The position numbers and the translations under genes are program-made. The notes beneath the pieces were generated by a model. The model worked only from the letters and a program-made list of their open reading frames with translations. It was not told the DNA's origin and did not search any database. Positions 8,305 to 30,582 of a stretch of 32,231 nucleotides of DNA are shown piece by piece. Origin of the DNA: Legionella drozanskii LLAP-1 (GTDB lineage: Bacteria; Pseudomonadota; Gammaproteobacteria; Legionellales; Legionellaceae); the NCBI RefSeq assembly GCF_001467585.1, contig NZ_LNXY01000011.1, positions 1 through 32,231 on the forward strand. Reading direction: 5' to 3'. Position 1 is the first letter of the stretch. Each line of letters opens with the position of its first letter.

Positions 8305-8338
8305 CAGTCAAATTGCCAGAAATGGCAATTTGACTGTT
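8303..8338. terminator. Bidirectional terminator between norB and the reductase gene
   Basis: Perfect 16-bp stem (arms 8303-8318 and 8323-8338, loop GAAA) between the converging norB and reductase genes. The left arm starts inside the norB stop codon. The outer A/T-rich ends supply short T runs for both directions. Confidence 0.85.
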
Positions 8339-8350
8339 TAAACAAAAGCC

Positions 8351-9307
8351 TTACAGAAAAGGATCACTAAAAATAAATTTAGAAGGCACACCTGCAAGAA
8401 AAATACTGGTTTTAAGTTTATTGGTTGTTTCTTTAGGCCCACAAACATATACACGTGTATCACTGGGATTATTAAGACAGGTTAAAACTTTTCGTTCAAT
8501 CGAAGCCTCTGGATAACATCCCTGACTGTTTAGTACGCAAGGTTCATAACGAAAATTTTTGAATACTGCAGCTAGAGTCTTAAGCTCCTCAGCATAATAA
8601 ATATCATTATCAATATAACCGCCATGTATTAGAGTAATAGTGCCTTCATGCCCTTGGCTAAGAGCACTTTTAATGATACCGATTAAAGGGGCTAAACCTG
8701 TTCCTGTCCCCGCCAACAGCATATCAAATGACAAGTTATCAGGATTAAAGTAATAGCATTTACCAAAAGGACCTCTAAGCCTGACTCGTGTATCGATTAT
8801 CGCTGTTTCTTGCAACCATTGACTCATAGCACCATTCTCAACCATCTTAATTTGCAATTCAATATAACCATCTTGAGCTGGTATATTAGCAATAGAGTAG
8901 CTTCTAACAATCTGAGCCGAATTAATTAGATTAAGATATTGACCGGGAATCCAATCATCAAGATTGTCTACTAATAGCTTAATTTTTAACACATTATAAT
9001 TTAGTCGTTCCATGCCAAAAAGCTTGGCTTCCATATCACATTCAGCCGCATCTGGTGATTCGAGTTCTATATCTGTTGCAGGCTTTGCCATGCAGGCAAG
9101 AAAATACCTCTGTGCTTTTAGAGTTTCCGGGAGTCCTTCCTGCCAGGAAGGATCAATCTCACCATCTGTAGCCTTAATAAGACATGACTGACAAATCCCT
9201 GTCTGACATGAATTAGGATAATTAATACCATTGCGTAAAAAACAACTTAAGATGTTCTCATTAGCCGCCAATGAATAAGGCTGATTTTTAAAGGTTATTA
9301 TATTCAT
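8351..9307 (-). CDS. 2Fe-2S ferredoxin / FAD / NAD(P)H oxidoreductase, likely electron donor for the adjacent globin
   Basis: 318 residues in three parts. The N-terminal plant-type ferredoxin domain has cluster ligands C34, C39, C42 and C72 (CQTGICQSC...C). The FAD domain contains VRSYSIAN (RxYS). The NAD(P)H domain contains GTGTGLAPLIG and ends with VYVCGPKE. This order is that of the CDP-6-deoxyglucoseen reductase/phenol hydroxylase reductase-type enzymes. The gene lies 2 nt downstream of a truncated haemoglobin gene that carries an NsrR operator. I infer that it re-reduces the globin haem in an NO dioxygenase reaction, so that the pair replaces a one-chain flavohaemoglobin (Hmp). The 2Fe-2S domain is an extra module that Hmp lacks. 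Confidence 0.88.
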   Translation of the reverse strand: MNIITFKNQPYSLAANENILSCFLRNGINYPNSCQTGICQSCLIKATDGEIDPSWQEGLPETLKAQRYFLACMAKPATDIELESPDAAECDMEAKLFGMERLNYNVLKIKLLVDNLDDWIPGQYLNLINSAQIVRSYSIANIPAQDGYIELQIKMVENGAMSQWLQETAIIDTRVRLRGPFGKCYYFNPDNLSFDMLLAGTGTGLAPLIGIIKSALSQGHEGTITLIHGGYIDNDIYYAEELKTLAAVFKNFRYEPCVLNSQGCYPEASIERKVLTCLNNPSDTRVYVCGPKETTNKLKTSIFLAGVPSKFIFSDPFL

Positions 9308-9309
9308 AT

Positions 9310-9678
9310 CTAACGATCCAAAACATCGGAACGAACGCTATTAGCAATAGCGGCCACTTCATGAATATCGTTATCACTTACACCTAATTCTGTTAGTGTC
9401 GCACCTAAATGCTCGATAATGATGTCAACATGAGAATCGTTTAATCCCATTTTTACTAAATGACGATGCCCCTCTCGCATTCCTTTTCCTGTATAATGAT
9501 TGGGGCCACCAAAAACCATCGTTAAAAAACCTTTTTGTTTGATAATCTGTTGTTCCATATCGATCTCATCAAAAAAATTATTAACGCGTTGATCAGCCAG
9601 GATTTTTCGATAGAAAATATCTACAGCGGTGTTAACCGCTGCTTGGCCACCTAGACGTTCATATAGGGATGTGGACAT
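9310..9678 (-). CDS. Group I truncated haemoglobin
   Basis: 122 residues matching the trHbN/GlbN group: LYERLGGQAAV at the N-terminus, B10 tyrosine (Y23 in IFYRK), Phe pair at 35-36 for the CD1 position, FGGPNHYTGKGMREGHRHL with the proximal haem histidine most likely H71, then MGLNDSHVDIIIEHL. Group I globins with a B10 Tyr commonly turn over NO to nitrate using bound O2. Transcription into the downstream reductase (2-nt gap) and NsrR control of the promoter point to NO detoxification. A ribosome-binding AAGGAG lies about 9 nt upstream. Confidence 0.95.
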   Translation of the reverse strand: MSTSLYERLGGQAAVNTAVDIFYRKILADQRVNNFFDEIDMEQQIIKQKGFLTMVFGGPNHYTGKGMREGHRHLVKMGLNDSHVDIIIEHLGATLTELGVSDNDIHEVAAIANSVRSDVLDR

Positions 9679-9698
9679 AATTTTAACTCCTTACGTTA

Positions 9699-9721
9699 AA
9701 GATGCATTTGAAATACATCTT
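9699..9721 (-). promoter_or_regulatory. NsrR operator overlapping the globin promoter
   Basis: An 11-1-11 palindrome: AAGATGCATTT, G, AAATACATCTT, with one mismatch between half-sites. This fits the known NsrR site (AAGATGyATTT and its complement). On the minus strand a promoter TTGACT (9745-9740), 17-nt spacer, TAAGAT (9722-9717) precedes the globin. The operator covers the -10 and the expected start point, so bound NsrR would block transcription. The site also lies about 50 nt upstream of nsrR and could serve autoregulation. Confidence 0.9.
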
Positions 9722-9768
9722 ATAAAAAGGAATAATAGGAGTCAATAAATAATCTTGGAAATTTTACT

Positions 9769-10203
9769 ATGCAATTAACTCAATTCACGGATTACTCATT
9801 ACGAGCTTTGATCTATATCGCTCTGAAAAAAAATATCTGCACCATCAAAGATATTATTGAAGCTTATACTATTTCGAATAATCACATGATTAAAATAATC
9901 CATAATTTAGCCAAACTAGGGCTAATTAAAACTATTCGGGGTAAAAATGGAGGAATTACCATGGCGGTAAATCCTATAGACATTAATTTGGGAGCCTTGA
10001 TATTAAAACTTGAATCAAATTTTGATTTAGTTCCTTGTTTTAACAAAGAAAAAGCAAATTGTTGTATTGCCCCCGTATGCAAGCTTAAAAATATTCTTTA
10101 TGAAGCTCAGAAAGCATTTATGAATGTGTTAAATCAATTTACCTTAGCAGATATCGTACACAACAAAATCGAATTAAATGCTTTATTAAACATTCATACC
10201 TAA
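9769..10203 (+). CDS. nsrR: Rrf2-family NO-sensing repressor NsrR
   Basis: 144 residues with the NsrR N-terminus MQLTQFTDYSLRALIYIAL, including the aspartate at position 8 that ligates the cluster in characterised NsrR. A winged helix follows, with recognition segment ISNNHMIKIIHNLAKLGLI and wing RGKNGG. The cluster loop has C90, C98/C99 and C104 (PCFNKEKANCCIAPVCKLK), matching the three-cysteine Fe-S loop of NsrR/IscR-type Rrf2 proteins. Nitrosylation of the 4Fe-4S cluster relieves repression. It is divergent from the globin-reductase pair with an NsrR palindrome between them, which makes NsrR rather than IscR the confident choice. Confidence 0.94.
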   Translation: MQLTQFTDYSLRALIYIALKKNICTIKDIIEAYTISNNHMIKIIHNLAKLGLIKTIRGKNGGITMAVNPIDINLGALILKLESNFDLVPCFNKEKANCCIAPVCKLKNILYEAQKAFMNVLNQFTLADIVHNKIELNALLNIHT

Positions 10204-12332: not shown

Positions 12333-12421
12333 TTATTTACAGAGTTTTTAGTTTGAGCTAGATAACGTACCTTATCCATCACAAACAGGGTATAATGAGG
12401 GAAAATCAAAAAAGAGACCCT

Positions 12422-13444
12422 ATGAATTTCCTGGATGACCAAAATCCAAAAAATCGAAAGTTTGTGATAGATAAGATTTTCCATCCTTTGGATGTTCATT
12501 TTGACACCAATTCACTTTCAGCATGGTTGTCTTATTATTACTCAGTGCATGTAAAAGGGGCTCCAGAGAAAACCGAACAAGCCAAAATGAAAGACCTGTC
12601 AAAATTTATTCATTTTTTCCAAAATGAAGTAGGGCATGATTTGGTCGATAGTTGGACACCAGCAGTGAGCAAGCATTTTCAGAAAAATTTATGTAAAACG
12701 ATTTCAGAGAAAACCGGAAAACCATACAAAGCAACTTCTATTAATCGAACGATGGCAACAATTCGCCACGTAGGTCGATGGCTTCATCAACAACGTCCCT
12801 TATTAGCAGGCGATCCACTAGCGCAAGTTAAAGATCTACAAACCGATGCGCCTGATTGGAATGGATTAACTTCACGTCAATTAATGAGATTAAAATCTGC
12901 TTGCGAACAACGGATTAAAAGCTGTACACGCAAAAATCAAAATCCATTAATGGAAATGGCATTATTTTATGTGTTGCTTGGCACAGGGCTTCGCGAATCG
13001 GAAGTGGTTACCTTAAATGTCGGCCAGTATAGACAAAAGGGTTTGTGTGAAGTGTTACGCCATAAATCAAAACGAATCAGCCAAAAAATTCCTTTGCCGC
13101 AAGAGAGTAGGGGATATTTAGATCAATATTTAGAAAGAAGGGAGGCCCAAGAGGATGAACCTTTATTTATCACAAGATATGGTACTCGATTACAAACTTT
13201 AGACGTTTATCGAATATGTCAACGCGTTCTAAAGCAAGCCTTGGCTTTTTTGCCAGATCATGAGAAGTTTGAATTTACTCCTCATAAACTACGACATACT
13301 TTTCTAAAAAAGGTAACTGATAAGCACGGGGTGCATTTTGCGCAGGAAATAAGCGGAAATGTATCTATTAAAGAAATATTTCGTTATGCAAAACCCAGCC
13401 AGGAAGAAATGCAAACAACAATTGAGGAGTTATTTGAAATTTGA
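12422..13444 (+). CDS. Tyrosine recombinase / phage-type integrase
   Basis: About 340 residues. There is a core-binding N-terminal domain (SAWLSYYYSVHVKG onwards) and a C-terminal catalytic domain with GTGLRESEV (catalytic R), a lysine-rich beta-hairpin LRHKSKRISQKIPL, HKLRHTF (HxxR with a following H) and the C-terminal EIFRYAKP tyrosine. The usual second His/Trp (LGHxxIxxTxxY) is replaced: here the block reads ISGNVSIKEIFRY, with Asn at that place. An ATG at 12395 extends the frame by nine codons, but it overlaps a TATAAT (12391-12396) that looks like a -10 box, so I prefer ATG 12422. The role is integration or excision of an unknown element; no attachment sites were identified. Confidence 0.87.
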   Translation: MNFLDDQNPKNRKFVIDKIFHPLDVHFDTNSLSAWLSYYYSVHVKGAPEKTEQAKMKDLSKFIHFFQNEVGHDLVDSWTPAVSKHFQKNLCKTISEKTGKPYKATSINRTMATIRHVGRWLHQQRPLLAGDPLAQVKDLQTDAPDWNGLTSRQLMRLKSACEQRIKSCTRKNQNPLMEMALFYVLLGTGLRESEVVTLNVGQYRQKGLCEVLRHKSKRISQKIPLPQESRGYLDQYLERREAQEDEPLFITRYGTRLQTLDVYRICQRVLKQALAFLPDHEKFEFTPHKLRHTFLKKVTDKHGVHFAQEISGNVSIKEIFRYAKPSQEEMQTTIEELFEI

Positions 13445-16337: not shown

Positions 16338-16712
16338 ATGCAAATTAATACAAATTCGTTACAACAAATACCTGATGAGGTGATATGGAAATCGTTAATT
16401 AATCTTGTAGAACGTTTTGATTTGAAAGAAAACGAAGCCCGTATTTTAATGGGAGACATACCTCGATCAACATATACTTCTCATAAGGCAAAATTAAATA
16501 GGGATCAAAAAGAACGAGTTTCTTATCTTTTAGGAATCTATAAATCTTTACGTATTTTGTTTGATGATGCAGAGCAAGCTAGGACATGGATTAATCGTAA
16601 AAATAAATTACCTCCTTTTAATGGCTTAACCCCAAAGGAATATATGCTGGAAGGGGGGATGATTCGTCTTGCCGATGTGAGAAAGTTTCTGGATTTCTGG
16701 AGAGGTTATTAA
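16338..16712 (+). CDS. Xre/ParS (MbcA-type, DUF2384) antitoxin
   Basis: 124 residues. The first half is a helix-turn-helix (DEVIWKSLINLVERFDLKEN, ILMGDIPRSTYTSHKAK) and the second a DUF2384-type toxin-binding region (RVSYLLGIYKSLRILFDDAE, AWINRKNKLPPFNGLTPKEY and MLEGGMIRLADVRKFLD; the family pattern is pN...F.G.tPl..m..G....l..V...L). It neutralises the RES toxin encoded 1 nt downstream and probably represses its own promoter. The length and order (antitoxin first) are typical. Confidence 0.9.
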   Translation: MQINTNSLQQIPDEVIWKSLINLVERFDLKENEARILMGDIPRSTYTSHKAKLNRDQKERVSYLLGIYKSLRILFDDAEQARTWINRKNKLPPFNGLTPKEYMLEGGMIRLADVRKFLDFWRGY

Positions 16713-16713
16713 G

Positions 16714-17394
16714 ATGTACTCATTTAGGGATTATGATAAAAAAGTTCATAGATTAATACCCTCTAAATTCCCACCAGTAACATTATTTGATTGGGCAGAT
16801 TCGCTAGAAGAGCTTGAGCAAATTGCTCTTCTTGAAGGTTTAACTAATGAAAGGATTTTATTAGAGCTTGGTAAAATAAATCTAATAGACAAAGAAGATT
16901 GGATAGGAGGCCCTGGTTCGACGCCCATCATGGCTGCTTTTACGCATACTGGATTTGGTTCAAGATTTAGCGACGGCAACTTTGGTGTTTACTATGCTGC
17001 TTCGTCACTTGAAACAGCTATAAAAGAAACTTGCTTCCATCGAGAAAGATTTTATAGTGCCTCTAATGAAAAACCATGTTCCATCTCTATGCGAGAGTAT
17101 CTTAGTAAAATACGAAAACCATTAGTGGATATTACAGATAAACGCTATGAGAAATTATTTAATCCTGATCCTGCAAATTATAGTATAAGTCAAGAGTTTG
17201 GAAAAAAAATACACGAGGATAAACATTGGGGATTGTTGTATCCAAGTGTTAGAAATATTAATGGCTTATGTATGGGGATATTTAGACCTCCTGCTTTAGA
17301 AATACCTATACAAGGATGTCATTTAAGGTATATTTGGGATGGACAACGAATTTCAGAAGTATATAAAGAAAGTAAAATAAGGAATTTGCCATAG
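16714..17394 (+). CDS. RES-domain toxin (NAD-consuming type)
   Basis: 226 residues. RES-domain landmarks are the arginine in HRLIPSKFPP near the N-terminus, RFSDGNFGVYYAASSLETAIKET (the R...G...YxAxxxxTAxxE core, about residues 87-110), and a conserved serine late in the domain (LLYPSVRNINGLCMGIFRPP). Characterised RES toxins (MbcT, Res) degrade NAD+ and halt growth when released from their Xre antitoxin. The start ATG is 1 nt after the xre stop with GGAGAGG a few bases upstream, so the two are translationally coupled. A MITE-like element sits 4 nt after the stop codon. Confidence 0.92.
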   Translation: MYSFRDYDKKVHRLIPSKFPPVTLFDWADSLEELEQIALLEGLTNERILLELGKINLIDKEDWIGGPGSTPIMAAFTHTGFGSRFSDGNFGVYYAASSLETAIKETCFHRERFYSASNEKPCSISMREYLSKIRKPLVDITDKRYEKLFNPDPANYSISQEFGKKIHEDKHWGLLYPSVRNINGLCMGIFRPPALEIPIQGCHLRYIWDGQRISEVYKESKIRNLP

Positions 17395-21269: not shown

Positions 21270-22040
21270 CCATAAGAATGTAAAAGAAAGTTAAGTAAGG
21301 GGCTAAGGGAGTAATGGAACCGCCAACCCACTTAAGCATTAAATTGAGCCTGTAAAAAATTTGTGTAACTGCAAAATCTCAATTAACGGGTTTTACCGCA
21401 TAATATGCCACAGCATAAAAATTGTAATTTGCTTACCTAACCCCAATAAGTGCAATAATGGGAACAATTTCGCTTATCATGATTCCCATTATTTTTGTCT
21501 TATGTTTCCCGTCACTTAGATGGGTGCGAATAGCAAGCTCTGAAACAAAAGGTGCCTCTGGATAGTTATCGAATTATGGTGTGTTTACTCACCGCCGGAA
21601 CAGGACATTCTTACCGCATAGCGGCTTATCCCAACAGGCTCTTTGGAGGGGCTTCTTAATTTCCCCCTTATAGGAAGGAGCTTAATGATTCTCTTCATAT
21701 GGAGTCTACCATCAAGCACATTAATTTTACGCAAATTGAAATTAAATTAGGTTGAAAAAACATATTTTGAACTAATGGGCTAATTAACACTCTATAGAAA
21801 ATGGACAAATAATTGACAAAACAAAAAAAGTGCTCTTAAAATCCGCTACTAGTAAATATTCTGCCAATTAAGTCGAATGGTACTAGGCTTCGACGTAATA
21901 TGGGACAAATTAAGAGTCATCATATGGCATCTTCGGCTATCTAAATTTTAAGTTTCAATTTCTGAAAATAGTTTGATAGCTCGCATTCTATTCCTACTAC
22001 GTGAGGTAAAGAATGCAAAGTTTAAATTAGCAGGATTTTA
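21270..22040. other. 770-bp intergenic region before cas1
   Basis: No convincing gene. The segment near 21346-21370 (GAGCCTGTAAAAAATTTGTG) resembles the end of an insertion sequence, but I could not find a matching opposite end. A minus-strand stretch (about 21433-21560) is open without a start (SELAIRTHLSDGKHKTK). Near cas1, TTGATA (21973-21978) and TACTAC (21995-22000) could be a weak promoter, and GTGAGGTAAAG lies upstream of the gene. A site CC-AATTAA at 21864-21871 resembles the seed of the CreR-like guide described below. Confidence 0.4.
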
Positions 22041-22988
22041 ATGGAAATATTAACTGACTTAAAAGCAATTTTGCACTCGAAACGCGCGAATATTTATTAC
22101 TTAGAAAAATGCCGCATTATGCAAAAAGATGGAAGAGTGCTGTATCTTACTGAGGCAAAAGAGGAAAACCAATATTGGAATATCCCTATTGCTAACACAA
22201 CCTGTCTGCTACTGGGAACTGGAACATCTATTTCTCAAGCTGCAATGCGCATGCTGGCTCAAGCCGGAGTATTAGTTGGATTTTGTGGCGGAGGAGGTAC
22301 ACCACTGCTTATGGCGAATGAAGTCGAATGGTTCAGTCCTCAAAGCGAATACCGCCCCACAGAATATGTGCAAGGATGGATGAAATTTTGGTTTGACGAA
22401 ATAAAACGCTTAAATGTAGCTAAACGATTTCAGCAGGCTCGTATTACTTTTATTGAACAAGTATGGGGAAGAGATTCGGATTTGATATCAAAGGGATTTT
22501 ATCTTGATGATATTGATATTCAGACGGCATTAACCAACTTTCGTAAAAGCATTGTCAATGCCCAAGGAGTATATGAGTTATTACTTATTGAGGCCAAGTT
22601 AACCAAAGCCCTATATAAGATTGCTGCGAATCGTACGAATCAAGCTGGATTTACACGTGAATATAATAGTGACGACGATGCTAATGCGTTTTTAAATCAT
22701 GGTAATTATTTAACGTATGGACTTGCTGCGACAGTATTGTGGGTATTAGGTATCCCACATGGTTTTGCTGTTATGCATGGAAAAACGCGTCGTGGGGCGT
22801 TGGTTTTTGATGTGGCCGATTTGATTAAAGATGCCTTAATTCTGCCATGGGCTTTTATATGTGCCAAAGATGAAACAACAGAGCAAGAGTTTCGTCAACA
22901 ATGCTTACAAAATTTTATTAAACATAATGCGCTTGAGTTTATGTTTGATTTTGTTAAAACAATCAGTTGTGAAGGGCCTTCTTTATGA
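22041..22988 (+). CDS. cas1: CRISPR-associated endonuclease Cas1, type I-F
   Basis: 315 residues. The integrase of the adaptation complex, which with Cas2-3 inserts new spacers at the leader end of the array. Type I-F Cas1 landmarks: LKAILHSKRANIYYLEKCRI at the N-terminus, LLLGTGTSISQAAMRMLAQA and VGFCGGGGTPL, and the C-terminal metal-binding region with NHGNYLTYGLAATVLWVLGI and HGKTRRGALVFDVADLIKD (conserved His and Asp). It overlaps cas3 by 4 nt (ATGA), so adaptation genes are translationally coupled. The start ATG at 22041 gives the full family length. Confidence 0.98.
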   Translation: MEILTDLKAILHSKRANIYYLEKCRIMQKDGRVLYLTEAKEENQYWNIPIANTTCLLLGTGTSISQAAMRMLAQAGVLVGFCGGGGTPLLMANEVEWFSPQSEYRPTEYVQGWMKFWFDEIKRLNVAKRFQQARITFIEQVWGRDSDLISKGFYLDDIDIQTALTNFRKSIVNAQGVYELLLIEAKLTKALYKIAANRTNQAGFTREYNSDDDANAFLNHGNYLTYGLAATVLWVLGIPHGFAVMHGKTRRGALVFDVADLIKDALILPWAFICAKDETTEQEFRQQCLQNFIKHNALEFMFDFVKTISCEGPSL

Positions 22989-25900
22989 TGGTCACGTTTG
23001 TATCACAATGCGAGAAAAAAGCGTTAAATAAAACACGTAGGGTATTGGACTCATTTGCAAGTCGTATTGGTGAAAATACTTGGCAAACTATTATCACCCA
23101 TGAAGGTTTAAATGCAGTTAAAAAATTATTAAAAAAAACAGCCTCAAAGAATACGGCTGTTTCTTGTCATTGGCTGAGGAGTCGTAGCCGTAGCGAATTA
23201 ATTTGGATTATAGGAAATCGTAGTAAATTTAATGCGCAAGGTATTGTTCCGGTACACTTCACGCGAAAAGATATTGTAAATACGCGCTGGGAAAATGATT
23301 GGCATTATCTTCCTTTGATTAAATGTCTGGCAGCCTTAGCCTCCTTATTTCATGATTTTGGCAAAGCTTCGAGGTACTTCCAGGAGAAATTGAAACCTGA
23401 AAGTAAAAACAAACTGGGTGACCCCTTGCGGCATGAGTGGGTATCGGTTTTATTGTTTCAAGCATTTGTAAAAAATAACTCAGATGTAAAAAATAACTCA
23501 GACGCTCAATGGCTGGATCGTTTGATCCATGGGGATCTGAATGAAATGGTTTTGGCACAAAATATTTCAGAAACACCGTTGGAAAATTTACCCCCGCTAG
23601 CAGGCCTGTTGGCGTGGTTGATAGTATCTCATCATAAATTGCCAATTAATTTAAACCGTAATTACAAAGATGACCACTTAAGAACACTAGATGAAGCGTT
23701 ACGTCAAATTTCTCAAACTTGGGGTTATGAAAACAGAAAAGATGAGAAATTTTATGAGGCCAAGCTTAAACAGTGTTTGACCTTTGATGATGGTTTGTCC
23801 AGCCAATCACTGCCATGGTTAAAACTTGTCAAAAGATGGGCATCCAAAATGCGAGATTGCCTATTTTTATTAAATAAGGCTATGGAAAATGGTAGCTGGC
23901 GATTAATTTTATATCACGCGCGTTTATCATTAATGTTGGGCGACCATAATTATTCATCACAAGGTGCCAGCAAAACCTGGCATTCAGATATGGATTTGAT
24001 AGCCAATACATATAGAAAAGATTGTAATGGCCATAGTAAAGGAGAGCCCAATCAAAAGCTGGATGAACATTTGGTTGGAGTAGCTCATTCAGCGCTTGAT
24101 ATCGCCCAATTATTACCGGCATTTGAGAATGAATTACCTTATGCGTACGATATAAGAGCACTCAAGAAAAAAAGCCCGTCTGCATTTGGATGGCAAGATA
24201 AGGCCGTTGAAAAAGTTAAAGAATGGAAACAAAGCGTTCCTGTTGCATACCAAGATAAACAACATGGTTTTTTCGCAGTTAATATGGCAAGTACGGGTTG
24301 TGGTAAAACTTATGCCAATGCAAAAGTCATGCGCGCCCTATCACCTGATCGTGAGAGTCTTCGTTTTATTTTAGCATTGGGTCTCAGAACACTTACGCTT
24401 CAAACTGGTGACGAATATCGGGAACGTATCGGTTTGGACAACAGCGAGCTTGCAGTAATGATTGGCTCCAGAGCTGTAATGGAGTTGCATAAACAAAATA
24501 AGCTTGAACAAAAAGAGCAAGAAGACTTTAATGAATCAGCCGGTGCTGAGTCAATGGGGGCTCTACTGGATGATGATATGATTGATTATGAATGCGTAAT
24601 ACCGGAATCGCGGTTAAATACTGTTCTAATTGATGAGCGTAGTCGGAAATTTCTTTATTCACCTGTGCTGGCTTGCACAATTGATCATTTAATACCCGCC
24701 ACAGAGTGTGTGCGTGGAGGGCGTTATATTTTGCCAAGTCTGCGATTAATGTCGTCAGACCTAGTAATTGATGAGATTGATGACTTTAATGGGGCCGATC
24801 TTGTCGCTATTGGTCGCCTTATTCATTTGGCTGGTATGTTGGGACGAAAAGTCATGATTTCTTCTGCAACAATCCCCCCAGATCTTGCGGAAGGTTATTT
24901 AAACGCCTACCGCGAGGGCTGGTTGTTATTTGCCAATACACGAGATGTTAGTTTCAATATTGCTTGCGCATGGATCGATGAATTCGGGACTCAGATTGAG
25001 ACGTTGTCTGATTCAGATACTAAACAGGCACTGAAGTGTTACGAGAACTATCATCAAACGTTTATCAAGAAACGAGTTAAAAAATTAAAAGCGGAGCCAA
25101 TCAAGCGTAAAGTCGAAATAGTTTCGTGCCAGCACATTAAGGAATTTAGAGCTCAGGTTAAAACAAATGAGGATAAGATAACAATAGAACATGCATATTT
25201 TAACGTAATACAAAAAGCAATTATAGAAAAGCATTTACAGCATGCAGAGATTGAACCGTTAACTGAAAAAATGGTTTCAATTGGTCTTGTGCGTATGGCG
25301 AATATAGATCCTTGTGTAGCTTTGACTGAATATTTGGCTACTATCGATTGGCCGAATGACATTGATTTTCGTGTGATGGCTTATCATAGTCAGCAGGTGT
25401 TGTTATTACGTAGTGAACAGGAAAAACATCTCGATGAAGTGCTGAAGCGCAATGAAAAGGGTGGAGAAATTCCAAAGCCTTTTCAAAATGAGATTATTCG
25501 TTATCACTTATCAAATAGCAAATCACAACACATAATTTTTATTTTGGTTGCTACTCCAGTTGAAGAGGTAGGGCGCGATCACGATTTTGATTGGGCTGTA
25601 GTAGAGCCGTCTTCTTTTCGTTCTATTATTCAATTGGCTGGTCGAGTGCTGCGTCATCGCAATAAAATACCAAAAACACCTAATATCGCTTTGATGCAAT
25701 ACAATTTGAAAGCGTTAATTAATGCCGATGAACACCCTGCATATTGCTGTCCTGGTTATGAACAAAAAGATTGTTTATTTTCTACACATGATATTAATCA
25801 GTTAATTGACCATAAATTATTAACCGAAGGTATCAATGCTCTACCACGGATACAACGGGATATTAGTCTCAAATATAAGCACAATTTTGCTGATATGGAA

Positions 25901-26362
25901 CATTACTCCATATCAAAACTATTAACAGGTTGGAAAATTAAAGATAGCGCTGCATTAGTTGGGCCTGAAGAAATGCAGGGATGGTTGACCCAATGTTGGT
26001 GGTTAACCGCTTATCCACAAAATTATAATCGGTTTCGTGAAAGTGGTTTAGATAAACAGTTATTTTTAGAGGCAGAATGTGGTGAGCTGAAATTTATGCA
26101 AAAAACTGAGGGAATTCCGATTGAGTATGTGAATCGAACCGCCGTTTATGGGATTAAAGTGAATCAACCGGTAGAACGAATACTAAGTAAATTATGGCTG
26201 GATTGCGATTATCAACAATTAATAGAAGTTATTGCCAATAAAACAAACAAAACTAAATCACAGGCCACACGTATTTATGGTGAAATTTCATTGCCAGTAT
26301 ATAGTCATAAAATTCAGTTTTATCAGTACTCATACCAACTAGGTTTATCTCGACTACGCTGA
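22985..26362 (+). CDS. cas3: Cas2-Cas3 fusion nuclease-helicase, type I-F
   Basis: 1125 residues. Domains in order: an N-terminal Cas2 domain (about 1-95), a HD nuclease (LFHDFGK with H123/D124, SHHKLP at 215-220, GDHNYSS at 319-325), and an SF2 helicase with Walker A ASTGCGKTY (435-443), DExD-type VIDEID (594-599), SAT motif (626-629) and a motif VI-like QLAGRVLRHRNK. The helicase unwinds and HD degrades target DNA recruited by the Csy complex; the Cas2 part works with Cas1. An 18-nt tandem duplication inside the HD domain gives KNNSDVKNNSD (residues about 163-173), in frame. The gene is intact. Its transcript probably ends in the hairpin just after the stop. Confidence 0.98.
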   Translation: MMVTFVSQCEKKALNKTRRVLDSFASRIGENTWQTIITHEGLNAVKKLLKKTASKNTAVSCHWLRSRSRSELIWIIGNRSKFNAQGIVPVHFTRKDIVNTRWENDWHYLPLIKCLAALASLFHDFGKASRYFQEKLKPESKNKLGDPLRHEWVSVLLFQAFVKNNSDVKNNSDAQWLDRLIHGDLNEMVLAQNISETPLENLPPLAGLLAWLIVSHHKLPINLNRNYKDDHLRTLDEALRQISQTWGYENRKDEKFYEAKLKQCLTFDDGLSSQSLPWLKLVKRWASKMRDCLFLLNKAMENGSWRLILYHARLSLMLGDHNYSSQGASKTWHSDMDLIANTYRKDCNGHSKGEPNQKLDEHLVGVAHSALDIAQLLPAFENELPYAYDIRALKKKSPSAFGWQDKAVEKVKEWKQSVPVAYQDKQHGFFAVNMASTGCGKTYANAKVMRALSPDRESLRFILALGLRTLTLQTGDEYRERIGLDNSELAVMIGSRAVMELHKQNKLEQKEQEDFNESAGAESMGALLDDDMIDYECVIPESRLNTVLIDERSRKFLYSPVLACTIDHLIPATECVRGGRYILPSLRLMSSDLVIDEIDDFNGADLVAIGRLIHLAGMLGRKVMISSATIPPDLAEGYLNAYREGWLLFANTRDVSFNIACAWIDEFGTQIETLSDSDTKQALKCYENYHQTFIKKRVKKLKAEPIKRKVEIVSCQHIKEFRAQVKTNEDKITIEHAYFNVIQKAIIEKHLQHAEIEPLTEKMVSIGLVRMANIDPCVALTEYLATIDWPNDIDFRVMAYHSQQVLLLRSEQEKHLDEVLKRNEKGGEIPKPFQNEIIRYHLSNSKSQHIIFILVATPVEEVGRDHDFDWAVVEPSSFRSIIQLAGRVLRHRNKIPKTPNIALMQYNLKALINADEHPAYCCPGYEQKDCLFSTHDINQLIDHKLLTEGINALPRIQRDISLKYKHNFADMEHYSISKLLTGWKIKDSAALVGPEEMQGWLTQCWWLTAYPQNYNRFRESGLDKQLFLEAECGELKFMQKTEGIPIEYVNRTAVYGIKVNQPVERILSKLWLDCDYQQLIEVIANKTNKTKSQATRIYGEISLPVYSHKIQFYQYSYQLGLSRLR

Positions 26363-26366
26363 TTAA

Positions 26367-26398
26367 AAGTTATTGATCTTTCATGAGGCCAATAACTT
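26367..26398. terminator. Hairpin after cas3, also at the end of the antisense RNA candidate
   Basis: AAGTTATTG (26367-26375) pairs perfectly with CAATAACTT (26390-26398), 5 nt after the cas3 stop. Read on the minus strand the stem is followed by a T run (CAATAACTTTTAATC), so it could end the leftward CreR-like transcript; on the plus strand it could end cas1-cas3 transcripts. Confidence 0.45.
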
Positions 26399-26415
26399 CT
26401 GTTAATTTTCGGTAA

Positions 26416-26489
26416 AAATGTTGCTGCCTATTCGGCAGTTCATAAATTAATGGAATTAATTTTTCTAAGCTACCTCTCCGGCAGTAAAG
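26416..26489 (-). ncRNA. Degenerate two-repeat mini-CRISPR: candidate CreR-like cas-regulating RNA
   Basis: On the minus strand a pseudo-repeat (26489-26462) matches the array repeat at 23 of 28 positions and ends in the exact 5' handle CTTAGAAA. Next comes an 18-nt guide AATTAATTCCATTAATTT (26461-26444). A second pseudo-repeat (26443-26416) matches at 18 of 28, keeping the Cas6f stem-loop CTGCCGAATAGGCAG but losing the last seven bases. Only the parts needed in a mature crRNA (5' handle, 3' hairpin) are conserved. The guide is shorter than the 32-33 nt of the array. A possible -10 TATACT lies at 26540-26535 on the minus strand. The function is inferred: Cas6f-processed RNA loading a short Csy complex. 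Confidence 0.75.
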
Positions 26490-26614
26490 AGTTCAATTAG
26501 TCGGTTTAGCTCACAGCTTAGTAAATTAACATAAAGTATATAGAGCATAGAATCCTTCTTCTGAGCTTATATTAAAAATATAATCACAGCTGATTCATAA
26601 AAAACCAAAAAAGA

Positions 26615-26636
26615 AATAATTAATAGAAATAATTGG
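26615..26636 (-). promoter_or_regulatory. Candidate CreR target site with CC PAM next to the csy1 promoter
   Basis: On the minus strand CC (26636-26635) is followed by AATTATTTCTATTAATTA (26634-26617). Against the guide AATTAATTCCATTAATTT this is 15 of 18, with mismatches at positions 6, 10 and 18. The CC is the 5' PAM used by type I-F. The site ends 2 bp before the -35 box, so a bound Csy complex, whose large subunit sits on the PAM side, would block the promoter. Confidence 0.65.
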
Positions 26637-26637
26637 T

Positions 26638-26666
26638 TTGACAATTGTGTTGAGAGTACTTATATT
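26638..26666 (+). promoter_or_regulatory. Strong sigma-70-type promoter for csy1-csy2-csy3-cas6f
   Basis: TTGACA (26638-26643), exactly 17 nt, TATATT (26661-26666). The start point would be near 26673, giving a 5' leader of about 20-25 nt before csy1. This is the best-looking promoter in the cas region and shows that the interference genes are transcribed separately from cas1-cas3. Confidence 0.85.
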
Positions 26667-26698
26667 TCCGCCCGATCGCACTAAAACGGGGAGTGATT

Positions 26699-27928
26699 TT
26701 GGGTGATGTTATTAAGACCTTTTTATTTGAAAGAAAGGCGAGTTGGATTAAGAAAAAAATCAATTCCGGAATGACTTCCGAGGAAATAAAGCGTATTGAG
26801 CAGGAGTCAAATAATATTTTTTCGCCTGATAGCTGGTTACCTGACGCTGCCAAAAGGGCTAGTCAATTATCCATAGTGAGTCATCCTGGAAAATTTAGTC
26901 ATCCTGCTGCAAAAATCAGTCCTATTATCGCTGAGTGTAAGAGATCCGAGGATGGATTTTTAAGGACGGGCAATGCACATGCTCAATTAGACGTTTTTGG
27001 TAATGCTGCAGCTATGGATGTGTTTAAATTCTTGTCGTTGACGCTGGACGATGGGCAAACAATTTTGACACATTTAGAGCTTAATACAGAGGTCATTCAA
27101 AATGAAATGAATGTATCGACTATGCATTTTGATGTGTTACGCAAAGGGTTTCTTTCGATAAAGAAAAATACGACTACTGCGATTACAAGTGAGTGTGTGA
27201 AGCAAGTATATTTTCCTGTTGCTAGTGGTTATCATTTATTATCAATTTTGACACCCTCAGGTTTGGTATACGAATTAAGAAACCGTATTCAAAGTATTCG
27301 ATTTTCTGATGAAATTAAAGAAGCTCGGGATAACAAACGAAAAAATCTTTATAACGAAAAAGGTTTTGATGAGTTATATGGTTTAGCGATGATTGGATAT
27401 GGGGGAACCAAACCACAAAATATCAGTATACTAAATAGTACCTACGGTGGAAAATCCTATTTGCTCTCCAGCATCCCTCCAAATTTATCCAGTCATCATA
27501 TTCGGTTGCCTAAAAATAATTTTTTTTCTAACACTCTGAGACCCAAAAGTTTTGAGCAACATTTTGTCAAAATACATAATTTATACCTTGCGGATTATAA
27601 TAATAAAAAAATACGCGATAGCTTGGATTGGAGAGTGCAAGATATTATTAACGATATTATTGAAAGAATGTGGGTGGTCCGTCTAGCTGAGCCAGGTTGG
27701 TCGAAAGACACAAATTTACCAATTTACCAAAAAATATGGCTTGATGAGTCTCGTAAGGATGAACGCTTAACGGATGAGGATTGGCTTGATTCGGTGAGTA
27801 CTGATTTTGCACGCTGGTTTATTTCAACCTATGAGAAGTTAATAGGAAAAATGGCGATTACTTTGGATGATACTTATCTCCAGCATCTCAAGGCAGTGAT
27901 GATAAACAATGAAGAGAACTTGCTATGA
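26699..27928 (+). CDS. csy1: Csy1 (Cas8f), large subunit of the type I-F surveillance complex
   Basis: About 409 residues. Csy1/Cas8f binds the 5' handle region and reads the PAM. Recognised by position in the I-F operon, size and segments such as HAQLDVFGNAAAMDVFKFLS, FPVASGYHLLSIL, GYGGTKPQNISILNSTYGGK (the conserved G..KPQNIS.LN block of Csy1) and LRPKSFEQHFVKI. The frame can start at GTG 26693 or TTG 26699. GGGGAG (26688-26693) gives a 5-nt spacing to the TTG but would overlap the GTG, so I choose TTG. The stop overlaps csy2 by 4 nt (ATGA). Confidence 0.95.
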   Translation: MGDVIKTFLFERKASWIKKKINSGMTSEEIKRIEQESNNIFSPDSWLPDAAKRASQLSIVSHPGKFSHPAAKISPIIAECKRSEDGFLRTGNAHAQLDVFGNAAAMDVFKFLSLTLDDGQTILTHLELNTEVIQNEMNVSTMHFDVLRKGFLSIKKNTTTAITSECVKQVYFPVASGYHLLSILTPSGLVYELRNRIQSIRFSDEIKEARDNKRKNLYNEKGFDELYGLAMIGYGGTKPQNISILNSTYGGKSYLLSSIPPNLSSHHIRLPKNNFFSNTLRPKSFEQHFVKIHNLYLADYNNKKIRDSLDWRVQDIINDIIERMWVVRLAEPGWSKDTNLPIYQKIWLDESRKDERLTDEDWLDSVSTDFARWFISTYEKLIGKMAITLDDTYLQHLKAVMINNEENLL

Positions 27929-28809
27929 AACGAATCCTACTACTTCCATATTTGCGTATACAAAATGCCAACGCCTTATCCAGTCCTTATACCATAGGAT
28001 TTCCGGCTATGACGTCCTGGTTGGGCGCTGTACATGCATTGCAAAGACAATTAAATCAACAGGGATTTACTGATCTTGTATTCAAAGGCGTCTCAGTTGT
28101 GTCTCATGAATTCAAGTTGAATACATTCAAAGGGCATAGTGATTACGTATATTCCATTATTGGAACTGGGAATCCACTAGATAAAAACGGTGAGCGTTCG
28201 GCATTTATTGAAGAGGCGCGTTGTCATTTGACTGTTTCTATTGTGATTGAATATTCTGGCCTTGATAAAGATGATGAAGATAAATTTATAAATATTTTAT
28301 ATGCGCAGATGCATAGGAGTATGAAATTTTCGGGTGGAGATTTCCTAGGGTTTAAGAAGCCTTTTGAAAAACCCGAGATACTTAAAATAGGAGAGGATAA
28401 AGATTATCGTAAACTCGTACGAAAGTTGATGCCAGGTTTTGTTCTAGTCGAGCGTCGTGATTTGATGATTGACGCGATGAAAAATGGGCAGGACGCAATT
28501 GATGCGATGCTTGAGTATTTAAAGATAATGCATCGCAGTGAACAAAATGATCAGGGTAAAGTAACTTGGACTAGCGGACGTAAAACATCTGGATGGATTG
28601 TTCCCATAGCTACTGGTTTCCACGGGATTTCTCCTCTTGGACAAGCACAGAATCAACGAGCCCCTGATATACCTCACCGATTTGCCGAAAGCGTTGTAAC
28701 TCTTGGAGAGTTTAAAATGCTATATCGTATAAAAAATATTGATGACATGCTTTGGCACTCCTGCTTCGATATTGAAAATAATTTATATCTTTGCCAACAC
28801 AATACATAA
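27925..28809 (+). CDS. csy2: Csy2 (Cas5f), 5'-handle-binding subunit
   Basis: 294 residues. Csy2/Cas5f pairs with Csy1 at the 5' end of the crRNA. Characteristic N-terminus: RILLLPYLRIQNANALSSPY and TIGFPAMTSWLGAVHALQRQ (the IxxANA.SS..TIGFPA..A..G..HAL pattern). Later: MRS.KF-type segment HRSMKFSGGDFLG and GWIVPIATGFHGISPLG with FAESVVTLGEFK near the end. It starts inside the csy1 stop (ATGA) and is followed 28 nt later by csy3. Confidence 0.96.
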   Translation: MKRILLLPYLRIQNANALSSPYTIGFPAMTSWLGAVHALQRQLNQQGFTDLVFKGVSVVSHEFKLNTFKGHSDYVYSIIGTGNPLDKNGERSAFIEEARCHLTVSIVIEYSGLDKDDEDKFINILYAQMHRSMKFSGGDFLGFKKPFEKPEILKIGEDKDYRKLVRKLMPGFVLVERRDLMIDAMKNGQDAIDAMLEYLKIMHRSEQNDQGKVTWTSGRKTSGWIVPIATGFHGISPLGQAQNQRAPDIPHRFAESVVTLGEFKMLYRIKNIDDMLWHSCFDIENNLYLCQHNT

Positions 28810-28837
28810 AAACTAAATGTAAGAGGAAATTTATACT

Positions 28838-29869
28838 ATGGCTAAAAATGAAAACATGGCGACCGTACTCGCATTTGAAAAAAAACTGGTACCTTCGGAT
28901 GGTTATTTTTATGGTACAACTTGGAATAAACGTCATCTTGAGGCGACACCTTTGCAACTATTGGAAAAATCAGTACGTGGAACGATTTCGAATCGGTTGT
29001 CAAAACCATTACAAGCTGATCCTACAAAACTGGATGCAAAAGTTGAAAATCCTAACTTACAAACTGTGGATTGCTGTGCTCTTGGTGTTGAACAAGATAC
29101 TCTTAAATTGCATTTCACTCTGAAGATCTTAAGTCAGGTTGAAAAACCTTCTGCTTGTAACAATGCTGTATTTAATGAGAGTTACGCTGCGGCAGCTAAG
29201 AATTATATCGAACAAGAAGGTTTTACGGAATTAGCAAAACGTTATGCTATTAATATAGCCAATGCACGTTTTTTATGGCGTAACAGAGTAGGTGCTGAAC
29301 ATATAGAGGTTAGTGTTAAAGTTTTAAATTCTGAAAAAGAAGAGTCTTGGGTTTTTGATTCCTCTAATTATTCTATTAACGATTTTAACCATAGCGATGA
29401 GTTGATTAATCCCTTGGCTGAAAAAATAGCCCTTGCTTTATCTGGTAAAATACCCTTTTTATTATTGAATATTACAACTTATGCGAAAGTTGGTCGCTCT
29501 CAGGAAGTATATCCGAGTGAAGAGCTAATTTTGGATAAAGGAACTGGTAAAAGCAAAAAGAGCAAGATTTTATACCATATTAACGGCGTTGCTGGAATGC
29601 ATTCTCAAAAAATTGGTAATGCATTAAGAACTATTGATACCTGGTATCCAGAATATAGTCATGTTACTACAGGGCCGATTGCTATAGAACCATATGGTGC
29701 TGTAACTAATCTTGGGATTGCATATCGTAATCCTAGAAATAAATCCGATTTTTTTACCTTGTTTGATAAATTTGCTCGGGGTGAAACGTTGACAACAAAA
29801 GAACAAGAGCATTATGTGATGGCAGTATTGGTCCGTGGTGGCGTTTTTGGCGAAAGCGGTAAGGAGTAA
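28838..29869 (+). CDS. csy3: Csy3 (Cas7f), crRNA backbone subunit
   Basis: 343 residues. Several copies of Csy3/Cas7f coat the spacer part of the crRNA, one per six nucleotides, and define target position flipping. Landmarks: TVLAFEKKLVPSDGYFYGTTW at the N-terminus, NPNLQTVDCCALGVEQDTL, FLWRNRVGAEHIEV, INGVAGMHSQKIGNALRTID, and AIEPYGAVTNLGIAYRNP. AAGAGGAAA lies upstream of the ATG. Only 2 nt separate it from cas6f. Intact. Confidence 0.97.
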   Translation: MAKNENMATVLAFEKKLVPSDGYFYGTTWNKRHLEATPLQLLEKSVRGTISNRLSKPLQADPTKLDAKVENPNLQTVDCCALGVEQDTLKLHFTLKILSQVEKPSACNNAVFNESYAAAAKNYIEQEGFTELAKRYAINIANARFLWRNRVGAEHIEVSVKVLNSEKEESWVFDSSNYSINDFNHSDELINPLAEKIALALSGKIPFLLLNITTYAKVGRSQEVYPSEELILDKGTGKSKKSKILYHINGVAGMHSQKIGNALRTIDTWYPEYSHVTTGPIAIEPYGAVTNLGIAYRNPRNKSDFFTLFDKFARGETLTTKEQEHYVMAVLVRGGVFGESGKE

Positions 29870-29871
29870 TC

Positions 29872-30450
29872 ATGAATTTTTACCAGGATATCACTTTACT
29901 GCCCATGGCTGATATTAATATATATTTCTTATGGGAGAAAATATATCAAATGATTCATCTGGGTTTGGTGGAAACAAAAATGCCTAATGGTTTATCACCA
30001 ATTGGACTTGCTTTTCCAGAGTATGATGCTGAAAAATGTCAGTTGGGTACCAAATTAAGAGTATTTGCTATGGAAAAGCAAATGCTCGAGAAATTTAATG
30101 CAATAAAATGGTTAAATAATTTCTCTGATTATGCTCACATAACTGGAGCTCGTGATGTCCCGGGTAATATAACCAGCTATGTTCGTTTCAAACGAAAGCA
30201 ATCGAAGTCTAATACTGAACGCATAGCTCGAAGAAAGGCAAAGCGCGAAGGGATTGATTTGGAGAGTGCGATGGGATTATTAAAAAATCATAAAGAATCA
30301 TTAATACGTGCGCCATTTATAAAAATTTCGAGCCTAAGCTCCAAAAACACATTTAAGCTCTTTATTTATAAAGAACCCTCTGAGGAACTTATAAATAATG
30401 CATTCAGTTGTTATGGTTTAAGTTCTGTATCAACGCTACCTGACTTTTAA
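29872..30450 (+). CDS. cas6f: Cas6f (Csy4), crRNA-processing endoribonuclease
   Basis: 192 residues. Cleaves the repeat RNA at the base of its hairpin and stays bound to the 3' end. It aligns by eye with Pseudomonas aeruginosa Cas6f: N-terminal YQDITLLP, general-base His at position 29 (KIYQMIHLGLVE), an arginine/lysine-rich recognition helix (YVRFKRKQSKSNTERIARRK), a serine-rich active-site loop (ISSLSSKNTFKLFI, matching RSQSTGQHFRLFI) and the ending SCYGLSSVSTLPDF (CYGLS in the family). Last gene before the array. Confidence 0.97.
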   Translation: MNFYQDITLLPMADINIYFLWEKIYQMIHLGLVETKMPNGLSPIGLAFPEYDAEKCQLGTKLRVFAMEKQMLEKFNAIKWLNNFSDYAHITGARDVPGNITSYVRFKRKQSKSNTERIARRKAKREGIDLESAMGLLKNHKESLIRAPFIKISSLSSKNTFKLFIYKEPSEELINNAFSCYGLSSVSTLPDF

Positions 30451-30582
30451 CCTTTATTTTTGCTGTTCTTTAAAAATTTATTTAAATCAATAGGTTGCGA
30501 TCATATAAAATATCAATGGTTACACATCGATATCTTATACTAGCTTATTGTTTATTAAATTGATTTTAAGTGTGAAATTTGG
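30451..30582 (+). promoter_or_regulatory. CRISPR leader with IHF site
   Basis: A/T-rich 132-bp leader between cas6f and the first repeat. AATCAATAGGTTG (30485-30497) is a perfect match to the IHF consensus WATCAANNNNTTR, located about 90 bp from the first repeat. IHF bending is needed for leader-end integration in type I-F. A TATACT (30536-30541) may be a -10 for pre-crRNA transcription; no good -35 was found at the right spacing. Confidence 0.7.

What the first reader, a model, noticed from the sequence alone, without database searches (positions are those of the whole stretch)
26615..26666. Guide of the mini-CRISPR matches a PAM-flanked site abutting the csy1 promoter
Guide AATTAATTCCATTAATTT against the minus strand after CC at 26636-26635, AATTATTTCTATTAATTA: 15 of 18 match, with mismatches at 6, 10 and 18. 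Positions 6 and 18 are not paired in class 1 complexes because every sixth base is flipped out. The CC is the type I-F PAM, and the PAM lies 1-2 bp from the -35 TTGACA of a 17-nt-spaced promoter. Limited complementarity would favour binding without Cas3-driven destruction. The model: the Csy complex loaded with this RNA represses its own operon, so that loss of crRNAs, or Csy-blocking anti-CRISPRs, would raise csy expression.
Basis: partly seen in the sequence, partly recalled or inferred. Interest (0 to 1): 0.95.

Follow-up and report, generated by a model that had tools for sequence, protein, structure and literature searches.

The report
CRISPR guide targeting its own promoter
A tiny CRISPR unit in this Legionella genome encodes a short guide that fits the switch of its own CRISPR genes, most likely a built-in dimmer of a kind already described in other bacteria.

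Summary
A two-repeat mini-CRISPR lies antisense between cas3 and csy1 of a complete type I-F locus in a Legionella genome. Its 18-nt guide matches a CC-flanked site 15/18 (mismatches 6, 10, 18), 1 bp from the -35 of a TTGACA-17-TATATT promoter before csy1. One other CC-flanked site in the genome matches as well, inside a coding sequence.

Of 105 csy1 stretches scanned, 27 carry a mini-array antisense upstream of csy1; all 27 have a CC-flanked partial match on the array's strand. Searched without a PAM, the best match is CC-flanked in 25 of 26, with one tie. Mismatches pile up at positions 6, 12 and 18 (51 of 75, against 28 of 382 elsewhere). A promoter-like sequence begins 0-2 bp after the PAM in 23 of 26, against 8 of 273 control sites. 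L. nautarum's guide differs only at position 6.

So this is most likely a CreR-type autorepressor guide: a new Legionella member of a known kind. Repression was not tested.

The parts
22041..22988 (+). cas1f
   Evidence: TIGR03637, 480 bits
22985..26362 (+). cas3f, ends just upstream of the gap
   Evidence: TIGR02562, 963 bits
26416..26443 (-). R2 of the mini-CRISPR: ATGAACTGCCGAATAGGCAG|CAACATTT; Cas6f-type hairpin, followed by a T run (terminator-like)
26444..26461 (-). 18-nt guide AATTAATTCCATTAATTT (position 1 = 26461, position 6 = 26456)
26462..26489 (-). R1 of the mini-CRISPR: CTTTACTGCCGGAGAGGTAG|CTTAGAAA; hairpin with one G-U pair, 5' handle CTTAGAAA identical to that of the array
26617..26634 (-). 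target (protospacer) AATTATTTCTATTAATTA, 15/18
26635..26636 (-). PAM CC (GG on the + strand), 1 bp from the -35
26638..26666 (+). csy1 promoter-like sequence TTGACA-17-TATATT (11 of 12)
26693..27928 (+). csy1 (cas8f); start GTG 26693 or, by comparison with the 75% identical homologue L017, TTG 26699
   Evidence: TIGR02564, 216 bits
27925..28809 (+). csy2
   Evidence: TIGR02565
28838..29869 (+). csy3
   Evidence: TIGR02566
29872..30450 (+). csy4 (cas6f), the expected processing enzyme
   Evidence: TIGR02563
30583..31993 (+). canonical CRISPR array, 24 repeats (consensus GTTAACTGCCGTATAGGCAGCTTAGAAA), 23 spacers of 32-33 nt

Best explanation
The gap between cas3 and csy1 holds a self-regulatory guide gene of the CreR kind. 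The mini-CRISPR would be transcribed leftward. Cas6f (Csy4) would cut both repeats and release a short crRNA: 8-nt handle, 18-nt guide, 20-nt hairpin. Loaded with it, the Csy complex would recognise CC at 26636-26635 and open an R-loop of about 18 bp immediately upstream of the -35. The complex would then cover the -35 and block RNA polymerase. The R-loop is too short to license Cas2/3, so the chromosome is not cut. The result is negative feedback on csy1-csy4: repression is strong when free Csy complex is plentiful. It eases when canonical crRNAs compete for Csy proteins or an anti-CRISPR removes the complex. Shown here: the repeats, guide, target, PAM, promoter register and their recurrence in other type I-F loci. 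Inferred: transcription, processing, binding, repression and its relief.
For: Anatomy. In the genome, one equal CC-flanked match besides this one, in a coding sequence.

Comparative series (105 csy1 stretches taken). In 27 of 27 antisense mini-arrays the best CC-flanked site is unique and on the array's strand; positions 1-5 have 0 mismatches in 27, position 6 has 18/27, position 12 16/27, position 18 18/24. Pooled with L. nautarum dropped: 51 of 75 against 28 of 382. Guides tried on other loci's stretches reach 15/18 or more in 6 of 624 pairs, all six within one genus or family; own guides do so in 16 of 23. Without requiring a PAM, the best site is CC-flanked in 25 of 26 and tied with a TA site in one. 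A promoter-like sequence starts 0-2 bp after the PAM in 23 of 26 at score >=7, 19 at >=8 and 14 at >=9, against 8, 2 and 0 of 273 other GG sites.

L. nautarum: the gap differs by 2 of 330 bases. By reading, one is guide position 6 (26456), giving 16/18, and the other is 26614, outside the target.

In the WCHA45 CreA, mutating pair 10 was tolerated, 6 and 18 are naturally unpaired, and 2-5, 7-9 and 13-17 are needed (PMC10097628). Here the three mismatches fall at tolerated positions and all the needed ones pair.
Against: No expression, processing or binding data. The distribution in the window's family is patchy: of 12 csy1 loci found in 143 genomes, only the window and L. nautarum carry the intact arrangement. 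G083 (Csy1 75% identical) has a degraded version: R1 stem mismatch, no clear R2, no CC-flanked site better than 9/14, best site 12/14 next to CT. The other nine show none by the stem scan.

The match is AT-rich, a second 14/18 CC site lies in the same gap, and genome-wide the number of near matches is like that of the reversed pattern. Promoter-like sites in the gap are not more frequent than in shuffles, and another on the csy1 strand (26526-26553, 10 of 12) might also serve csy1. In the wider series, when the promoter was sought anywhere from 80 bp before to 120 bp after the PAM, the top-scoring one lay 0-2 bp after it in only 18 of 27. L065, L074 and L110 have no good promoter there. Only 4 of 26 loci have no mismatch outside 6, 12 and 18; the window is not one of them.

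No good promoter was found for the mini-array: the best on its strand, 9 of 12, overlaps the target itself. The folded unit prefers pairing R1 with R2 over two local hairpins.
Confidence: 0.84

Rival explanations
1. An addiction module (CreTA or CrePA kind): the guide represses a toxin, not csy1, so that loss of the Csy complex poisons the cell.
For: The described Acinetobacter I-F creTA lies in exactly this cas3-csy1 gap, with a CC-flanked target (PMC10097628 section 6) and a 20-nt guide.
Against: In that module a 33-bp mini-ORF with its own ribosome-binding site follows the target. Here only 26 bp separate the -10 from the csy1 GTG, with no room for one. A 27-codon ORF in the gap (26548-26465, minus) is on the array's strand and not under the targeted promoter. 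I did not list every ORF shorter than 80 codons.
Confidence: 0.07
2. A relic or chance: a decayed pair of repeats whose AT-rich filler happens to resemble an AT-rich promoter.
For: AT-rich guide; a second 14/18 site in the gap; genome-wide count of near matches like that of the reversed pattern; a degraded relative in G083.
Against: Shuffles, position of the match at the promoter, intact hairpins and handle, and the same pattern in the other antisense mini-arrays.
Confidence: 0.05
3. The guide serves another target (a mobile element), or the repeats act as a Racr-like decoy for Cas6f, and the promoter match is secondary.
For: Solitary repeat mimics of phages bind and are processed by Cas6f and inhibit immunity (PMC10651486, abstract start, passages).
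Against: Racrs are described as solitary units in viral genomes; this is a two-repeat unit with a guide in a host cas locus. All 27 antisense mini-arrays match a CC-flanked site between themselves and csy1. Other targets of this guide outside its own genome were not searched.
Confidence: 0.03

Closest known systems
CreR, cas-regulating RNAs of modulatory mini-CRISPRs (types I-B, I-E, V-A)
   Same: A crRNA-like RNA partly complementary to the promoter of its own cas genes, generally without a toxin gene (PMC13131331 and PMC12737573 passages). That it comes from a two-repeat mini-CRISPR is recalled from the primary abstract.
   Different: Type I-F; guide of 18 nt. The passage names I-B, I-E and V-A. 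The primary paper was not seen.
Regulatory mini-arrays of Shmakov et al. 2023 (NAR, gkad495), including a type I-F1 case
   Same: From my recall of its abstract: mini-arrays partly complementary to cas8 promoters, one type I-F1 case shown to act as a regulatory guide. This is the nearest precedent.
   Different: The paper is not held; only its citation was seen. I cannot say whether Legionella is in its tables.
CreTA of type I-F in Acinetobacter (PMC10097628)
   Same: Same position between cas3 and csy1, CC PAM, guide of 20 nt with pairs missing at 6, 11 and 18, antitoxin action that needs the Csy complex but not Cas1 or Cas3 (passages and section 6).
   Different: There the target lies downstream of a toxin promoter and a mini-ORF follows; here it abuts the -35 before csy1 and no toxin ORF follows.

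Membership tests
CreR-type cas-regulating mini-CRISPR | Two degenerate repeats able to form the Cas6 hairpin, outside the array | tested here: met
   R1 and R2 each fold to a 5-bp stem with a 5-nt loop; the array is 4 kb away. Folded together they pair with each other
CreR-type cas-regulating mini-CRISPR | Guide with limited complementarity to a PAM-flanked site at a cas promoter | tested here: met
   15/18, CC, 1 bp from the -35 before csy1; the promoter itself is a consensus match, not shown to be active
CreR-type cas-regulating mini-CRISPR | No toxin gene under the targeted promoter | tested here: met
   Only 26 bp between -10 and csy1 start
CreR-type cas-regulating mini-CRISPR | RNA processed by Cas6, and Cas-dependent repression | not testable with these tools
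   No expression data
CreTA (type I-F) | Mini-ORF toxin with ribosome-binding site downstream of the target | tested here: not met
   No room for a separate ORF between 26666 and csy1
Canonical CRISPR array | Identical repeats with spacers of about 32 nt | tested here: not met
   R1 and R2 differ from each other and from the array repeat; spacer is 18 nt against 32-33 in the array
RNA anti-CRISPR (Racr) | Solitary repeat mimic encoded in a viral genome | tested here: not met
   Lies inside a complete host I-F locus with two repeats and a guide; definition from the abstract start of PMC10651486

The most novel reading that the evidence does not exclude
Type I-F autorepressor guides follow a written rule that can be read from sequence alone. 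The CC PAM sits 0-2 bp from the csy1 -35, pairing is kept at positions 1-5 and nearly kept up to about 17, every sixth base is free to drift, and complementarity mostly ends near 18 nt so that the R-loop stays below the length that licenses Cas2/3. The window and L. nautarum would show the rule in action: the one guide base that differs is position 6.
Probability: 0.6. Interest if true: 0.55.

Novelty: new member of a known kind. Interest (0 to 1): 0.42.

Why it matters
It brings RNA-guided self-control of CRISPR to a Legionella type I-F locus. The wider comparison gives a sequence rule (PAM register, six-base mismatch rhythm, short guide) for spotting such regulators automatically. It also suggests how a DNA-destroying machine can safely sit on its own chromosome: by keeping the R-loop short rather than by weak binding. 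It predicts that phages with anti-CRISPRs would trigger more Csy production in such hosts.

Tried and rejected
Chance was considered and rejected, although the genome-wide count of near matches alone (7 against 5 for the reversed pattern) would not reject it. A CreTA reading was considered and rejected for lack of a toxin ORF. The second CC site at 26391-26408 was rejected as a likely operator: mismatches at 4, 6, 10 and 11, and position 4 is needed in the WCHA45 CreA. The five mini-arrays found only on the csy1 strand (L115, L116, L118, L120, L121; distant Csy1s) were left out of the 27. Tested apart over their whole stretch, each has a best CC-flanked site of 14-17/18. Loci L060 and L064, missed by the detector and read by eye, give 14/18 (mismatches 6, 11, 12, 18) and 16/18 (6, 18); they are not in the counts. 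Selection between the window and L. nautarum could not be tested: the gap differs at only 2 of 330 bases and the cas genes are 98.8-99.8% identical. A base-by-base listing of that gap was misaligned by my own offset error and is not used. The output was cut and is not relied on.

The 105 stretches (1,560 bases each) are: 12 of 12 genomes with a match; 29 others of the 30 loci fetched (32 genomes matched); 26 of 27 loci (L099 repeats L062); 29 new ones of the 30 fetched (47 genomes matched); and 9 of 11 loci (L006 and L007 repeat L003 and L018). They are not dereplicated further; some come from related genomes, so the 27 are not 27 independent events. Of the 33 stretches with a repeat pair, L122 was a canonical array and was dropped, and a second hit on the other strand of L105 was dropped.

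Full report
What is there. The window is one whole contig of a 3.56-Mb genome. Its nearest named relative at this locus is Legionella nautarum, csy1 99% identical. G014 of the window's genus group, whose contig has the same length as that L. nautarum record, holds the same locus; I take the two to be one genome and the window to be a Legionella. The locus is a complete type I-F system: cas1f, cas3f, csy1-csy4 and a 24-repeat array. The 330 bp between cas3 and csy1 hold a two-repeat mini-CRISPR on the minus strand and a TTGACA-17-TATATT promoter-like sequence on the plus strand.

The observation. The guide (minus 26461-26444) and target (minus 26634-26617, CC at 26636-26635) match 15 of 18 with mismatches at 6, 10 and 18. 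The PAM is 1 bp from the -35. Guide shuffles that keep dinucleotides reach this at any of the 19 CC sites of the gap in 0.195% of 20,000; shuffles of the gap reach it in 0 of 5,000. Restricted to the 15 sites between R1 and csy1, p = 0.004. Over the whole genome two CC-flanked sites reach 15/18, and the other is inside a coding sequence that I read as secF, by eye. Against this: the genome's 7 matches at up to 3 mismatches over CC plus guide compare with 5 for the reversed pattern, so the place and not the count is the evidence. A 14/18 CC site at 26391-26408 (+) lies in the same gap. Promoter-like sites in the region number 3 against 1.6 +/- 1.3 in shuffles.

Anatomy of the guide RNA. R1 keeps the 3' handle CTTAGAAA of the canonical repeat and a 5-bp stem with one G-U pair; R2 keeps a perfect stem. 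Cas6f cutting at the base of both stems (established for Csy4; recalled) would give an 8 + 18 + 20 nt RNA. The WCHA45 CreA is reported with a 20-nt 3' handle, as typical of a I-F crRNA. The R2 hairpin is followed by a T run and also scans as a terminator-like site. Folded as a whole, the unit pairs R1 with R2 arms (-19 kcal/mol), so local hairpins are not the predicted minimum. No convincing promoter for the mini-array was found: the best on its strand (TTGTCA-17-AATTAT, 9 of 12) overlaps the target. If it is real, the guide would also repress itself.

Relatives in the family. In 143 genomes of the window's family, 12 have csy1. L. nautarum (L003) has the same mini-array. Its gap differs at 2 of 330 bases, which by reading searches are 26456 (guide position 6) and 26614 (3 bases beyond the target). 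Its guide therefore matches 16/18. G083 (L017, csy1 75% identical) has a degraded version: same R1 handle and first eight guide bases, an A-A mismatch in the R1 stem (by reading), no clear R2, no CC-flanked site better than 9/14, and a best site of 12/14 next to CT upstream of TTGACT-17-TATATT. CT does serve as a PAM in one described I-F1 system (PMC7296934 abstract). The other nine show no mini-array by the stem scan of 1,560 bases; in several, by reading, csy1 follows cas3 closely.

Relatives at large. I scanned 105 csy1 upstream stretches (sources and drops are in Tried and rejected). Thirty-three had an R1+R2 pair: one was a canonical array, five were on the csy1 strand only, and 27 were antisense like the window's. 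In all 27 the best CC-flanked site between mini-array and csy1 is unique and on the array's strand. Mismatches by guide position 1 to 18 are 0, 0, 0, 0, 0, 18, 1, 2, 1, 4, 2, 16, 1 of 27; 4, 4 of 26; 4, 6, 18 of 24. With L. nautarum dropped, positions 6, 12 and 18 are mismatched in 51 of 75 cells and all other positions in 28 of 382. Only 4 of these 26 loci have no mismatch outside 6, 12 and 18. When each guide of 18 nt or more is tried on the other loci's stretches, 6 of 624 pairs reach 15/18, all six within one genus or family (L002-L003; L132, L140, L143; L149, L150), while own pairs do so in 16 of 23. Because CC was imposed in that count, I repeated it without a PAM: the best site is CC-flanked in 25 of 26 and tied between CC and TA in one. 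A promoter-like sequence scoring at least 7 begins 0-2 bp after the PAM in 23 of 26, against 8 of 273 other GG sites of the same stretches; at 8 the figures are 19 and 2, at 9 they are 14 and 0. L065, L074 and L110 are the exceptions. A freer search, from 80 bp before to 120 bp after the PAM, put the top-scoring promoter at 0-2 bp in 18 of 27 and elsewhere in 9. Guides are 13 to 33 nt long. Of the five guides of 24 nt or more named here (L054, L065, L068, L070, L074), complementarity falls off from about position 18, or earlier, in four; L074 still pairs at 20-23.

Mechanism. That every sixth crRNA base is flipped out and unpaired in type I complexes is established knowledge (recalled). The mismatch rhythm above is what that predicts for sites under selection for binding. 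For the window's third mismatch, position 10, mutation of that pair was tolerated by the WCHA45 CreA, whose natural mismatches are 6, 11 and 18; the positions it needs (2-5, 7-9, 13-17) all pair here (PMC10097628 passages). A type I-F1 Cascade binds with spacers from 14 nt, but only R-loops of full length or longer trigger Cas2/3 (PMC7296934 abstract), which explains how an 18-nt guide can be harmless to the chromosome. The WCHA45 CreA acts through the Csy complex without Cas1 or Cas3. The most likely function is therefore RNA-guided repression of csy1-csy4 by the Csy complex itself.

The CreR logic in the review passage (PMC12737573) is competition: canonical crRNAs pull Cas proteins away from the regulatory RNA, so more crRNA raises cas expression. 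Loss of canonical crRNAs should deepen, not relieve, repression. Relief by anti-CRISPRs agrees with that passage.

Novelty. Cas-promoter mini-CRISPRs are known: CreR in I-B, I-E and V-A (PMC13131331 passage), and, from recall of an abstract I could not open, cas8-promoter mini-arrays including a tested I-F1 case (Shmakov et al. 2023; citation seen). In my paper searches none of the rows listed, by title and start of abstract, describes a Legionella case or the six-base rhythm for I-F mini-arrays. One search listed 20 of 69 papers and 12 of 13. One Legionella CRISPR paper was looked at by passages only (PMC5071653, 12 of 27 places shown; the word 'promoter' does not occur in it). The library lacks the Shmakov paper, and the primary CreR paper was not seen, so this is weak evidence of novelty. 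I file the finding as a new member of a known kind.

Noticed in passing
L062 1308 onward and L068 1324 onward (flipped to csy1 strand): Between the guide-targeted promoter and csy1 lie small ORFs of 63 and 58 codons with similar starts (KKYVKEET / KRYVRKET); no Pfam match at E 0.001. They could be regulated cargo such as a CrePA-like toxin or an accessory Cas protein.
   Followed up: partly
L115, L118, L100: Some I-F mini-arrays have two CC-flanked partial targets (L118: 17/18 and 15/18; L115: 15/18 and 14/18; L100: 15/18 and 14/18), suggesting dual operators.
   Followed up: partly
L115, L116, L118, L120, L121: Distantly related I-F loci carry the mini-array on the same strand as csy1, several hundred bases upstream, each with a CC-flanked partial match downstream.
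   Followed up: partly
L105: A 20-nt guide matches its csy1 promoter site over 18 of the first 18, so there the short guide alone would have to prevent self-cleavage.
   Followed up: no
21722-30582: The cas genes are 98.8-99.8% identical to L. nautarum, yet the integrase gene at 12395-13444 is 86% identical over 919 bases and lies at another distance, and the left flank has no match in the 40 kb compared apart from that gene and a 72-base stretch; the two arrays share no identical spacer (23 against 11). The I-F locus may have moved recently between species.
   Followed up: partly
16338-17394: Xre/MbcA/ParS-type antitoxin followed by a RES-domain toxin, a toxin-antitoxin pair.
   Followed up: no
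5998-10203: Nitric-oxide handling cluster by family matches: NorB-type reductase, flavin/2Fe-2S reductase, bacterial globin and an Rrf2 regulator.
   Followed up: no
26217-26234 and 26391-26408: Two further sequences resembling the target (AATAACTTCTATTAATTG in cas3, minus strand, no CC; AATAACTTCTGTTAATTT after cas3, plus strand) lie left of the mini-array; origin unexplained.
   Followed up: no
26465-26548, minus strand: A 27-codon ORF (MLYILYVNLLSCELNRLIELFTAGEVA) with a purine-rich sequence before it ends in the R1 handle.
   Followed up: no
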